Shown in pieces: positions 22,175-26,155 of a stretch of 40,752 nucleotides of DNA. The stretch's first letter is position 1. Each line of letters opens with the position of its first letter. The notes beneath the pieces were generated by a model. The model did not search any database, was not told the origin of the DNA, and saw nothing but the letters and a program-made list of their open reading frames with translations. This DNA is from Mycobacterium sp. (GTDB lineage: Bacteria > Actinomycetota > Actinomycetes > Mycobacteriales > Mycobacteriaceae): NCBI GenBank assembly GCA_003987775.1, contig RXJD01000094.1, positions 1 to 40,752 of the forward strand. The letters are read 5' to 3'. A program made the translations under genes and the position numbers.

Positions 22175-23551
22175 GTGCCCATCGCCACCATCAACCCGGC
22201 CACCGGCGAAACAGTCAAAACCTTCACCCCCGCGACCGACGACGACGTCGAAGCAGCGATCGCGCGCGCCTACGCACGCTTCCAGGACTACCGCCGCAAC
22301 ACCACCTATGCCCAGCGTGCCGAGTGGGCAAACGCCACCGCCGACCTGCTCGAAGCCGAGGCGGACGACACCGCGGCCATCATGACTCTCGAGATGGGCA
22401 AGACGCTGGCCAGCGCCAAGGCCGAAGTGCTCAAGTGCGCCAAAGGATTTCGTTACTACGCCGAGAACGCCGAGGCGTTGCTCGCCGACGAGCCGGCCGA
22501 TGCCGGCAAGGTGAACGCATCCCGCGCGTTCACCCGCTACCAGCCGCTGGGCGTGGTACTTGCGGTGATGCCGTGGAACTTCCCGCTGTGGCAGGCCGTG
22601 CGGTTCGCGGCGCCGGCGCTGATGGCCGGCAATGTCGGCTTGCTCAAGCACGCGTCCAACGTCCCCCAGTGCGCGCTGTACCTCGCCGACGTCATTGCCC
22701 GCGGCGGCTTCCCGGACGGCTGCTTCCAAACGTTGCTGGTCGCCTCGGGTGCGGTTGAGAAGATCCTGCGCGATCCCCGCGTCGCGGCCGCCACGCTGAC
22801 CGGCAGCGAACCGGCCGGGCAGTCAGTGGGCGCCATCGCCGGGGACGAGATCAAGCCGACCGTGCTGGAACTCGGTGGCAGCGACCCGTTCATCGTGATG
22901 CCGTCGGCGGATCTGGACGCAGCGGTGAAGACGGCGGTCACCGGCCGGGTCCAGAACAACGGGCAGTCCTGCATCGCCGCTAAACGCTTCATCGTCCACA
23001 CCGACATCTACGACGAATTCCTCGACAAGTTCGTCGCCCGGATGCAGGCGCTGAAGGTCGGTGACCCCACTGACCCGGACACCGACGTCGGGCCGCTGGC
23101 CACCGAGTCCGGCCGCGACGAGATCGCCCAGCAGGTCAAGGACGCCGCCGCGGCGGGCGCCACCATCCGCTGCGGCGGCGAGACTCCCGACCGGCCGGGC
23201 TGGTTCTACCCGCCGACGGTCATCAGCGACATCACCAAGGACATGGCGCTCTACACCGAGGAGGTGTTCGGCCCCGTCGCGTCGGTGTACCGGACCGCCG
23301 ACATCGACGAGGCGATCGAGATCGCCAACGCCACCACCTTCGGCCTGGGGTCGAACGCCTGGACCGAGGACGAGGCCGAGCAGCAGCGCTTCATCGACGA
23401 CATCGTGGCCGGCGCCGTCTTCATCAACGGCATGACGGTGTCCTATCCGGAGCTGCCGTTCGGCGGCGTCAAGCGGTCCGGCTACGGCCGCGAGCTGGCG
23501 GGCCTGGGAATCCGGGAGTTCTGCAACGCCAAGACGGTGTGGGTGGGGTAG
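22175..23551 (+). CDS. gabD1: Succinate-semialdehyde dehydrogenase (NADP+) GabD1
   Basis: The 458-residue aldehyde dehydrogenase oxidises succinic semialdehyde to succinate, feeding the TCA cycle. The active site is intact: general base E232 in VLELGGSDPFIVM and nucleophile C266 in NNGQSCIAAKRF, with the usual 34-residue spacing. The N169-type motif VMPWNFPLWQAVRFAAPALMAGN is present. The start is GTG 22175, directly downstream of AGGAGGG (22163-22169). The length agrees with the shorter, functional form of mycobacterial GabD1 (Rv0234c). It is convergent with the R2lox remnant, with 6 bases between the stops. Confidence 0.95.
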   Translation: MPIATINPATGETVKTFTPATDDDVEAAIARAYARFQDYRRNTTYAQRAEWANATADLLEAEADDTAAIMTLEMGKTLASAKAEVLKCAKGFRYYAENAEALLADEPADAGKVNASRAFTRYQPLGVVLAVMPWNFPLWQAVRFAAPALMAGNVGLLKHASNVPQCALYLADVIARGGFPDGCFQTLLVASGAVEKILRDPRVAAATLTGSEPAGQSVGAIAGDEIKPTVLELGGSDPFIVMPSADLDAAVKTAVTGRVQNNGQSCIAAKRFIVHTDIYDEFLDKFVARMQALKVGDPTDPDTDVGPLATESGRDEIAQQVKDAAAAGATIRCGGETPDRPGWFYPPTVISDITKDMALYTEEVFGPVASVYRTADIDEAIEIANATTFGLGSNAWTEDEAEQQRFIDDIVAGAVFINGMTVSYPELPFGGVKRSGYGRELAGLGIREFCNAKTVWVG

Positions 23552-23557
23552 CGCCCC

Positions 23558-23680
23558 TCAGACCGCGGCCAGCGCGCGCTCGTCTTCGTCGGCGAAGTCG
23601 TCCTCGAGCTGCACCGGCGAGTAATCGAGGTCGATCTTCAAGCCGCCCGCCACCATCGAACCGGTATGGGTGCGTGTCAC
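23558..23680 (-). pseudogene. R2lox (Rv0233-like) in-frame deletion remnant
   Basis: This 40-codon ORF starts with GTG at 23680, inside the end of the TetR gene (GTGA overlap, 23677-23680), and has AGGAGG immediately upstream. Its first 14 residues, MTRTHTGSMVAGGL, match what I recall as the N-terminus of the R2-like ligand-binding oxidase (MTRTRSGSLAAGGL in M. tuberculosis Rv0233, 314 residues). The remainder, with DYSPVQLEDDFADED, matches my memory of the R2lox C-terminal tail. None of the iron/manganese-ligand helices is present. Position between gabD1 and the TetR gene is exactly that of Rv0233. The simplest reading is loss of about 270 codons by in-frame deletion, with the start, coupling and stop kept. 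It could still be translated as a 40-residue peptide. The C-terminal match is from memory and needs an alignment. Confidence 0.7.
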
Positions 23681-24372
23681 GTGACCTCCTGTGATCGGGC
23701 CGGGTTCGGGGCCTGGCCGGCGGCCGAACGCGGCGCGGAGAACGCGTCCGACAGCACCGCGACGAGTCGGCGCACGGCGAGCGCCGGTTGTTCGGGAGTG
23801 GGCTCGTCCAGACCGAGGATCGGGTCCAGACCGCGCATGTAGGGCGCCAGCGCCAGGTGCGGAAAGATCATCAGCAACAACGACAGCAGCGCGTCGGTGT
23901 CGGAATCCGCACGCAGATCGCCGCGCCGGTGTGCCTCGGTCACCAGCGGGCGCAGCACCTCCAGGTAGTGCCGGTGGATGACGTTGCGGACGCTGATGCG
24001 CGCGTCGGTGTCGACCTCCAGCGTCGCCGCGGCGTGCAGTGCGCGCTCACGGGGATGCTCGGCGTAATAGGCGACCCAGACGTCCAGTAGATCGGTCAGG
24101 AACTCGAAGAACGGCCTGCTCGGATCGAGTTCGCGGATGGTGCCCTCGATGTAGGCCCGCACGCGCTGGCTGCCGACGTCGGCGATGTAGGCGTAGAGGT
24201 CACGCTTGTCCGCGAAGTACTGGAAGAGGCTGCCCTTGGCGACGCCGGCGCGCCGGGCGATGACGTTGAGGCTGCCATTGGAGAACCCATGGGCACCGAA
24301 CTCGGCCTCCGCCGCCTCGATGACCGCGGCCCGGCGGGCCGGGTCGACACGTGCCCAGGTAACCGTCGGCAT
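23677..24372 (-). CDS. TetR-family transcriptional regulator (Rv0232-like)
   Basis: The 231-residue regulator starts at ATG 24372 (MPTVTWARVDPARRAAV), which has GGGAGG just upstream. The longer frame to 24399 would start inside the operator and is rejected. The HTH is at about residues 12-55 (AEFGAHGFSNGSLNVIARRAGVAKGSLFQYFADKRDLY, given in family order). The C-terminal domain is helical and unassigned. The stop overlaps the start of the R2lox remnant, so the regulator was once translationally coupled to R2lox. Its promoter region carries a perfect palindrome (24391-24407), probably its own operator, and a CRP-type site. Autoregulation plus cAMP control is inferred. Confidence 0.9.
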   Translation of the reverse strand: MPTVTWARVDPARRAAVIEAAEAEFGAHGFSNGSLNVIARRAGVAKGSLFQYFADKRDLYAYIADVGSQRVRAYIEGTIRELDPSRPFFEFLTDLLDVWVAYYAEHPRERALHAAATLEVDTDARISVRNVIHRHYLEVLRPLVTEAHRRGDLRADSDTDALLSLLLMIFPHLALAPYMRGLDPILGLDEPTPEQPALAVRRLVAVLSDAFSAPRSAAGQAPNPARSQEVT

Positions 24373-24390
24373 TGGCCTCCCCTCGCCGTA

Positions 24391-24407
24391 AATGACCACT
24401 GGTCATT
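24391..24407. promoter_or_regulatory. Palindromic TetR-type operator before the TetR gene
   Basis: AATGACCA-c-TGGTCATT is a perfect 8-bp dyad with a single-base centre, beginning 19 bases upstream of the TetR start codon. Such 16-18 bp dyads are typical TetR-family operators. The adjacent TetR protein is the obvious candidate ligand. Confidence 0.75.
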
Positions 24408-24409
24408 CT

Positions 24410-24429
24410 ACTGTGAGCCAGTTCACAGT
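24410..24429. promoter_or_regulatory. CRP-type binding site (TGTGA-N6-TCACA)
   Basis: ACTGTGA-gccagt-TCACAGT is a perfect 7-bp dyad containing an exact TGTGA-N6-TCACA core (24412-24427), the consensus of mycobacterial CRP (Rv3676). It lies 2 bases from the TetR-type operator and 38-57 bases upstream of the TetR start, so both proteins could bind the same promoter. Confidence 0.75.
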
Positions 24430-24448
24430 CAAGGCGCGTCAGCGTGCG

Positions 24449-26155
24449 TCAGGGGCGCATCTCGTACGCCCCGTTGAGGGGCAGCACGAATTCCTTCCAC
24501 ACGGTGTCGTAGCGCGCCGGATCGTTGGCCGGACGGCGAATCATGCGCAACGCGAACTTGGCCTGTTCGTCGGTGGTGGCGGCCTTGTCATGCAGCTCCA
24601 CGGCGTAGGTATTGAAGTCGCGGACCAGCAGCCCGAAGATCTCGTCGAGCAGCGCCTCGTCCACTCCGGACAACGGGGCTTCCTCCAGGATCAGCTGCGC
24701 GTACGGCACCAGCGCGAAGATCTGTCCCACACCGAAGGCGAAGTCGATGTCCTTCTGCTGCGCCGCATCCGGGGTGGCGCCGGCCAGCATCTCGGCCAGC
24801 ACGTCGATCTGCTGACGCAGCAGCGCGACGTTCGGCAGGTGCCCGTAGCTGTCGAACGGCGCCCGCCAGTCGTGGAAGCGGACCTTGCCCAGACCGCCGG
24901 TGGGTCCCTGGTTGAACAGGAACGTGTCGTCGGCGTCGTCGTCGCGGCGGCCGATCAGCGGCAGCGCGCCGTCCGGAGCGAACAGGAAGTTCGGCATGAA
25001 CTTGGCCAGCAGCCCGATGTTGATGTGGACGGTGCCCTCCAGCCGGGGCAGCAGGCCGATCTCGCGGGCGACGGTCTCGAAGAAGGTGTCCTTCTCGACG
25101 CCCTTGGCCGCGATGACGTCCCACAGCGCGGTGATCACCCGCTCGCCCTCGCTGGTCACCTTGGCCTTGGTCAGCGGGCTGTACAGCAGGTAGCGACGGT
25201 CCTCGGCCGACGCGCTGCGCATGTAGTCCGAAGCCCGGGCGCACACCAGTCGCATGGCGACGAGCCGCGCGTAGGCGTCGGTGAACAGCCGGCGGACGTG
25301 GCTGAAGTCGGTGACGACGGTGCCGTACAGGTGCCGGTTGGCGGCGTGGTTGATGGATTCGTAGAAGGCGTGCGTGCACATGCCGACGGCGCCCCAGCCG
25401 AGGTTGTACTTGCACACGTTGACCGTGTTCAGCGCGGCGTGGAAGGCGCCCATGCCGCGGTGCAGCAGGTCGGCCTCGGTGACGGGGTAGTCGTGCAGCG
25501 CGTAGTTGGCCACGTAGTTCTGCGAGTTGACGACGTTCTTCTTGCACTCGTACCGGTCGTCCTGGGAGTCCGCGGCGAAGAAGACGTACTCCGGCGAACC
25601 GGAACCGTCGTCGATGCGGCCGAACGTCGAAACCATCCGCGCGACGTTGGCGTTGCCGATGTAGTACTTCTCGCCGTTGGCGACCCAGCCGTGCTCGGAC
25701 GGCGTGAGGATCAGATCGGTCTGATAGACGTCGGCGCCGTGCGTCTGCTCGGACAGGCCGAAGGCGAACACCTCACCCTGCTCCAGCTGGGCGGCGGCCT
25801 TGCGCTTGGCGTCCTCGTTGTCGCTCATCCAGATCGGGCCCAGACCCAGGGCGGTCACCTGGAAGGGGTACCAGTAGCTCAGGCCGTAAAAGCCGATGAT
25901 CTCGGCGAATTCGCTGATCCGGTAGGTGTCCCAGCGGCAGTCGGCCGCGCCGTACTCGGCCGGCGTCATCAGCGAGGCGAAGATGCGGTTCTCGGCGATG
26001 TGGTTGAGGAAGTCGGAGTACCAGACGCGCTCGTGGTCGTCGTGCTTGAGCTTCGCCTTACCCCGGTTCTCGAAGAAGTCCACCGTGGCCTGCATGATCT
26101 CCCCCGACCGGGCATCCGGGTACTTGCGTTGCAGTTTGTTGGGATTGAGCAGCAT
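24449..26155 (-). CDS. fadE4: Acyl-CoA dehydrogenase FadE4
   Basis: The 568-residue protein is a divergent acyl-CoA dehydrogenase of the long mycobacterial kind; length and order match M. tuberculosis fadE4 (Rv0231). The FAD-contact segment is VFAFGLSEQTHGADVYQTDL, the middle beta-domain includes WVANGEKYYIGNANVARM, and the likely catalytic glutamate is E373 in LEGTVHINIG, analogous to the YEGTTAIQ of FadE5. It oxidises acyl-CoA thioesters; chain length is unknown. It precedes the TetR gene on the same strand, with 76 bases between holding the operator and CRP site. The start is ATG 26155, upstream of which lies a 128-base gap after the PE_PGRS stop. Confidence 0.92.
   Translation of the reverse strand: MLLNPNKLQRKYPDARSGEIMQATVDFFENRGKAKLKHDDHERVWYSDFLNHIAENRIFASLMTPAEYGAADCRWDTYRISEFAEIIGFYGLSYWYPFQVTALGLGPIWMSDNEDAKRKAAAQLEQGEVFAFGLSEQTHGADVYQTDLILTPSEHGWVANGEKYYIGNANVARMVSTFGRIDDGSGSPEYVFFAADSQDDRYECKKNVVNSQNYVANYALHDYPVTEADLLHRGMGAFHAALNTVNVCKYNLGWGAVGMCTHAFYESINHAANRHLYGTVVTDFSHVRRLFTDAYARLVAMRLVCARASDYMRSASAEDRRYLLYSPLTKAKVTSEGERVITALWDVIAAKGVEKDTFFETVAREIGLLPRLEGTVHINIGLLAKFMPNFLFAPDGALPLIGRRDDDADDTFLFNQGPTGGLGKVRFHDWRAPFDSYGHLPNVALLRQQIDVLAEMLAGATPDAAQQKDIDFAFGVGQIFALVPYAQLILEEAPLSGVDEALLDEIFGLLVRDFNTYAVELHDKAATTDEQAKFALRMIRRPANDPARYDTVWKEFVLPLNGAYEMRP

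What the first reader, a model, noticed from the sequence alone, without database searches (positions are those of the whole stretch)
23558..23680. R2lox gene reduced to a 40-codon in-frame scar that keeps its start, coupling and stop
Between gabD1 and the Rv0232-like TetR gene, where R2lox (Rv0233) is expected, there is only a 40-codon ORF. It starts with what I recall as the R2lox N-terminus (MTRTHTGSMVAGGL) and continues with a segment resembling its C-terminal tail. The ribosome site and GTGA overlap with the TetR gene are intact. A natural deletion that leaves start, coupling and stop in frame is unusual. It suggests that the whole oxidase was dispensable, or that the residual peptide or the coupling is still useful.
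Basis: partly seen in the sequence, partly recalled or inferred. Interest (0 to 1): 0.75.

Follow-up and report, generated by a model that had tools for sequence, protein, structure and literature searches.

The report
Oxidase gene deleted down to stub
A metal-dependent oxidase gene has been cut by a natural in-frame deletion to its first and last few codons in one Mycobacterium, and related species have lost the same gene separately with different cuts, so it looks like ordinary, repeated gene loss rather than a new small gene.

Summary
On the minus strand at 23558-23680, a 40-codon ORF holds the first 13-14 residues of R2lox (Rv0233 type) and its last 25, in frame, between a TetR gene and convergent gabD1. 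Against an intact 312-residue gene of a close relative the net loss is 272 codons (816 bp). No other R2lox was found in the genome. That the peptide or the coupling is still useful is not supported: R2lox is the last gene before a convergent neighbour, the joined ORF was seen in no other genome searched, and the start is GTG where 32 of 32 relatives' loci checked have ATG. Eight further species whose loci I read have lost R2lox behind a retained TetR gene, with different cut points; on a TetR+GabD1 tree eight absences (window included) need 7 changes. TetR stays under purifying selection without R2lox and its operator-like palindrome is conserved, so it probably serves something besides R2lox. 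Best reading: an illegitimate deletion, probably recent (one step, or two leaving a 2-codon island), removed a dispensable oxidase; staying in frame is a 1-in-3 coincidence. Ordinary gene loss, but a useful set of natural R2lox knock-outs and evidence that its patchy distribution is partly vertical loss.

The parts
23558..23680 (-). 40-codon in-frame remnant of R2lox (GTG start, TGA stop)
23642..23680 (-). codons 1-13, from the R2lox N-terminus
23636..23641 (-). codons 14-15, TTG AAG, at the joint; codon 14 is CTC, CTG or CTT in 97 of 97 relative rows; GGC TTG AAG occurs in frame at codons 256-258 of M. gordonae DSM 44160 R2lox
23561..23635 (-). 25 codons from the R2lox C-terminus (residues 288-312 of the intact gene)
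23685..23690 (-). AGGAGG ribosome site of the remnant, inside the end of the TetR gene
   Evidence: sequence
23677..24372 (-). TetR regulator (Rv0232-like by recall, 231 aa from MPTVTW; a longer GTG start at 24399 is possible); its TGA overlaps the remnant's GTG
24391..24407 (.). palindrome AATGACCANTGGTCATT over the -10, probable TetR operator (inferred)
24405..24432 (-). promoter-like TTGACT-16-TAGAAT
24412..24427 (.). TGTGAN6TCACA palindrome between the promoter hexamers, CRP-like (motif recalled, binding not tested); exact in 9 of 23 relative promoters
22175..23551 (+). gabD1-like aldehyde dehydrogenase (PF00171), convergent, ends 6 bp from the remnant's stop
24449..26155 (-). acyl-CoA dehydrogenase upstream of TetR (name fadE4 recalled)

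Best explanation
A natural deletion remnant. The ancestor had the usual order acyl-CoA dehydrogenase - TetR - R2lox facing gabD1. Illegitimate recombination without long homology removed the middle of R2lox (net 816 bp), either in one step (about 1 nt of homology plus changes or filler at the joint) or in two (729 bp between CGGC repeats, then 87 bp over AG, leaving codons 257-258 as an island). The joint is in frame, a 1-in-3 chance, so start and stop survive. R2lox ends the unit and is dispensable, so little selects against the loss; TetR and gabD1 on either side were kept. Shown: the homology, the missing middle, no second copy found, repeated loss elsewhere, constraint on TetR. Inferred: the mechanism, that it is recent, and that the 40-residue peptide does nothing.
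For: Both ends match syntenic intact R2lox in relatives. No R2lox elsewhere in the genome. Of 219 TetR-bearing genomes among 396 searched, 209 have an R2lox match (fragmentary ones included) and 10 none. Nine of those 10 loci were read (window, M. innocens, M. angelicum, M. gastri, five unnamed): each deletion differs. On a quick TetR+GabD1 tree of 63 rows, 8 absences need 7 changes, at least 6 by well-supported branches. Broken copies stand at the same place in M. attenuatum (matches in three frames, stops in each) and M. genavense (stops at codons 231, 234, 241, unless these are sequence errors). TetR dN/dS is 0.038-0.065 for the window against four clade members, 0.043 between R2lox-less innocens and gastri, 0.106 between R2lox-less L112 and L114. 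The remnant has 3 lineage-specific changes outside the joint, all synonymous, like intact relatives (2-3), which suits a recent event. [quoted passage not shown]
Against: Zero amino-acid changes in the remnant would also fit selection on the peptide. The two-step model needs two in-frame deletions; the one-step model needs two changes in codon 14 beside the joint. The ribosome site is good. No reads and no sister strain of this species could be examined.
Confidence: 0.87

Rival explanations
1. The 40-residue peptide is a functional small protein kept by selection, for instance as a tail-derived interactor or a short ORF that tunes TetR mRNA.
For: Intact frame, Shine-Dalgarno site and stop; no amino-acid change against G006, two M. 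gordonae assemblies and G202 in the 38 shared codons.
Confidence: 0.06
2. Assembly error: the real genome has a full R2lox here.
For: Draft assembly of 114 contigs; reads not available.
Against: The joint has at most a few bp of homology, so there is no repeat to collapse; no R2lox sequence turns up on any other contig; completeness is given as 100 with 0.03 contamination.
Confidence: 0.05
3. A deliberate in-frame laboratory deletion.
For: The design resembles one: start, a few codons and stop kept.
Against: I saw no cloning or recombinase scar at the joint (by eye); several other species carry R2lox deletions at this locus.
Confidence: 0.02

Closest known systems
R2lox (R2-like ligand-binding oxidase; M. 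tuberculosis Rv0233, PDB 3ee4/4ac8)
   Same: Both ends of the ORF, and its place between TetR and gabD1, are those of R2lox in relatives.
   Different: The whole Pfam-matched core (residues 28-265 of the intact homologue) is missing, so it cannot be the enzyme.
R2lox losses in M. gastri, M. innocens, M. angelicum and five unnamed species
   Same: R2lox removed behind a retained TetR gene, in seven of these eight with gabD1 next to it.
   Different: Different cut points: gastri keeps about 7 N-terminal codons with CTG where ATG is expected; angelicum's TetR frame now reads into the last R2lox codons and uses its stop; innocens keeps no R2lox that I recognise.
Broken R2lox in M. attenuatum and M. 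genavense
   Same: Loss of the same gene at the same place.
   Different: Stops and frameshifts, not a clean deletion.

Membership tests
R2lox enzyme | Ferritin-like Ribonuc_red_sm core (PF00268) with the dinuclear metal site | tested here: not met
   PF00268 matches residues 28-265 of the intact homologue, all within the deleted part; the own genome's only PF00268 hit is on contig 25.
R2lox enzyme | Score above the NCBIfam curated cut-off | tested here: not met
   34.5 bits against 346.
Deletion remnant of R2lox | Both ends homologous to an intact syntenic orthologue, middle missing | tested here: met
Deletion remnant of R2lox | No functional copy elsewhere in the genome | tested here: met
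.
Deletion remnant of R2lox | Joint real in reads and sister strains | not testable with these tools
   One genome per species is held, and no reads.
Functional small protein | Conserved as a 40-codon ORF across species | tested here: not met
Functional small protein | Translated and with a phenotype | not testable with these tools
   Needs ribosome profiling or proteomics.

The most novel reading that the evidence does not exclude
R2lox is a conditionally costly part of a TetR-controlled lipid response: mycobacteria keep the regulator under selection but repeatedly cut out the oxidase, and in this lineage the operon still makes a 40-residue tail peptide from the intact promoter, which may keep one of R2lox's non-catalytic contacts.
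Probability: 0.07. Interest if true: 0.55.

Novelty: new member of a known kind. Interest (0 to 1): 0.33.

Why it matters
The physiological function of R2lox is stated to be unknown (PMC6060897, passages seen). Natural knock-outs in separate Mycobacterium lineages, with relatives that keep the gene beside them (persicum and ostraviense beside gastri and innocens; szulgai beside angelicum; the gordonae group beside the window), give matched pairs for lipid or metabolite comparisons without engineering. The remnants also show directly that part of the patchy NrdB/R2lox distribution, for which PMC4428469 suggests horizontal exchange, is vertical loss. The finding itself is ordinary gene decay.

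Tried and rejected
A second R2lox elsewhere in the genome: none found. Long direct repeats at the deletion ends: none seen; at best 1-4 nt, depending on the model. TTGAAG from codons 21-22: these read TTG AAG only in L025 among the 13 relatives printed, so codons 256-258 (GGC TTG AAG in M. gordonae DSM 44160, GGC CTG AAG in G202 and G227) are the better source, but unproven. A terminator kept in the remnant: none by the consensus scan of 23300-24500, whose one hit lies in TetR. A 56-bp palindrome between R2lox and gabD1 in G006 and M. gordonae is absent from the window, but also from G227 and M. szulgai with R2lox (by eye), so it is not linked to the loss. Rfam on three loci that hold this palindrome (L022, L122, L114): nothing at or above the gathering score. 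Other TetR targets that would explain its retention: operator-like sites with up to 2 mismatches lie at three more places in the own genome, against 1 for the control pattern; one lies upstream of a gene that looks like isocitrate lyase (name recalled), but only 11 of 118 genomes had any match to that site with up to 1 mismatch, and at least five of the matches lie at the TetR promoter itself: a weak lead. Literature: searches for the R2lox full name with Mycobacterium, for Rv0233, R2lox, Rv0232, and for R2lox + gene loss + mycobacteria (the last found 0 papers; one search listed 30 of 39) showed no listed title about R2lox deletions in mycobacteria. Structure prediction of the 40-mer was not tried.

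Full report
WHAT IS THERE. On the minus strand at 23680-23558 a 40-codon ORF starts with GTG, overlaps the TGA of a TetR gene (GTGA), has AGGAGG four bases upstream of the start, and stops 6 bp from the stop of convergent gabD1. Its last 25 residues are the R2lox C-terminus and its first 13-14 the R2lox N-terminus. The N-terminal match on its own is weak in PDB (5 bits) but is residue-for-residue identical to the syntenic gene in G006. In relatives a 312-313-residue R2lox stands here: of the 80 best TetR loci, four have no R2lox match, one (L086) only fragments, and one (L071) a match broken near its end. Net loss in the window: 272 codons, 816 bp. In the own genome P0003 matches only the two halves of the remnant. 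The window belongs to an unnamed Mycobacterium of the M. gordonae group; the nearest rows by path on a TetR+GabD1 tree are G227, G006 and M. gordonae DSM 44160. Rv0232, gabD1 and fadE4 are names from recalled synteny.

THE JOINT. Scar codons 12-17 are GGC GGC TTG AAG ATC GAC. All 97 relative rows (some genomes appear twice) have CTC, CTG or CTT at codon 14, never TTG; codon 15 is AAG in one row. So either codon 14 took two synonymous changes beside a 1-nt joint, or TTG AAG came in at the joint. The in-frame 9-mer GGC TTG AAG exists at codons 256-258 of M. gordonae DSM 44160 (rows L005 and L022, the same genome); G202 and G227 have GGC CTG AAG there, G006 GGC CTG CAG. A two-step history (codons 14-256 lost over a 4-bp CGGC repeat, then 259-287 over AG) is possible but unproven. 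No long direct repeat was seen at the ends, which points to end joining or replication slippage and speaks against an assembly collapse.

IS THE REMNANT KEPT BY SELECTION? Over 38 codons it differs from G006, two M. gordonae assemblies and G202 by 12-13 synonymous and no other changes (the count includes the 2 at codon 14), and from G227 and the MAG L025 by 5 and 6 non-synonymous ones as well; the other seven relatives compared show 2-6 non-synonymous differences. Changes found only in the remnant, outside the joint: 3, all synonymous, over 37 codons against five relatives; the intact relatives show 2-3 synonymous of their own, and one of them 3 non-synonymous. That is no sign of decay, but with 3 changes it cannot tell a recent deletion from purifying selection. 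The start is GTG where 32 of 32 relatives' loci checked have ATG. R2lox is the last gene of its unit, so the kept overlap has no downstream gene to serve: it couples the remnant to TetR, not the reverse.

REPEATED LOSS. In a sample of 396 genomes of the genus, one per species, 283 have an R2lox match at E 1e-10 or better (some are fragmentary) and 219 have this TetR at 1e-60 or better; 209 have both, 74 R2lox only, 103 neither, and 10 the TetR without R2lox. I read nine of the ten sites; for frederiksbergense I only saw that no R2lox or gabD1 match lies in the fetched stretch. In eight of the nine, gabD1 follows TetR directly; in G160 no gabD1 match lies in the 6 kb fetched. The cuts differ. 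M. gastri keeps about seven N-terminal codons with CTG where ATG is expected. G104 keeps a start and MTRSGSL before the frame runs into a palindrome. G160 keeps a frameshifted N-terminus. M. angelicum's TetR frame runs into the last R2lox codons (LAGV) and uses the R2lox stop. M. innocens, G180 and G387 keep nothing I recognise, and G236 at most a few bases; these readings of short stretches are by eye. Of the nine, only the window keeps R2lox's own start and stop together in frame. On a quick tree of TetR+GabD1 (63 rows; 26 of the 89 loci put in lacked enough gabD1 and were left out, attenuatum among them; genavense counted as present) the eight absences need 7 changes, at least 6 forced by starred branches; shuffled labels need 7.7 on average, and L119 (G180) sits on a long branch. 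M. attenuatum (matches in three frames, stops in each) and M. genavense (stops at codons 231, 234, 241, unless sequence errors) carry broken copies, and in G227 an IS110-family transposase gene sits between TetR and an intact R2lox.

WHY TETR STAYS. TetR is under purifying selection with or without R2lox: pairwise dN/dS (simple Nei-Gojobori, residues 1-213, no branch test) is 0.038-0.065 for the window against four clade members, 0.043 for R2lox-less innocens and gastri, and 0.106 for R2lox-less L112 and L114; pairs that both have R2lox give 0.023-0.101, and mixed pairs outside the window's clade 0.043-0.134. The somewhat higher values among some R2lox-less rows could be slight relaxation. Its promoter carries a 17-bp palindrome AATGACCANTGGTCATT over the -10 (24391-24407), the only match in the window with up to 3 mismatches (0.05 expected; 5 of 100 shuffles had one). 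I asked for 27 relative promoters and the script found 23: 22 carry the palindrome with 0-2 mismatches and one with 4, R2lox-less ones included. Autoregulation by TetR is my inference. The regulator probably has a job besides R2lox; the upstream acyl-CoA dehydrogenase is the obvious neighbour, and a site upstream of an isocitrate-lyase-like gene is a weak second lead.

VERDICT. A real, clean deletion remnant, one of a series of independent losses of a dispensable oxidase. What stands out is the series and the retained regulator, not the in-frame scar. PMC4428469 (section 13 and passages read) reports differential NrdB distribution and non-essentiality and suggests horizontal exchange; the remnants here show loss as well. 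PMC6060897 and PMC3824934 (passages seen) say respectively that the physiological function is not known and that R2lox is not believed to take part in ribonucleotide reduction. PMC4181829 (passages seen) predicts Rv0232 within the Zur regulon, which I did not test.

Noticed in passing
L122:2358-2413, L022:5168-5223; genomes G000, G006, G119, G202, G227, G104, G236: An interspersed palindrome family with fixed ends GAGCAGACGC...GCGTCTGCTC and inner arms that vary but, in the copies listed, mostly stay self-complementary (by eye); 12-57 copies per genome in 7 genomes against 0 for the control pattern. It sits between R2lox and gabD1 in G006 and M. gordonae. It looks like a bidirectional terminator family with conserved tips; no Rfam match at gathering score in three loci.
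   Followed up: partly
window 24391-24432: The TetR promoter combines a CRP-like TGTGAN6TCACA palindrome between the hexamers (exact in 9 of 23 relative promoters) with a probable TetR operator over the -10 (0-2 mismatches in 22 of 23).
   Followed up: partly
L072:4100-4199 (M. angelicum): The deletion fused the TetR reading frame to the last codons of R2lox, so TetR borrows the R2lox stop codon.
   Followed up: yes
L120:1212-2447 (G227): An IS110-family transposase gene inserted between TetR and R2lox in a gordonae-group relative, separating genes that overlap or nearly touch in the other group members.
   Followed up: partly
G000:C74:45783-45799, G006:C1:1021121-1021137: The same operator-like site AATGACCACAGGTCATA upstream of an isocitrate-lyase-like gene (name recalled) in both genomes.
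   Followed up: partly
G074, G088, G114, G328: Genomes of 3.1-3.3 Mb give 2 to 7 weak R2lox matches each, suggesting decayed copies; not read.
   Followed up: no
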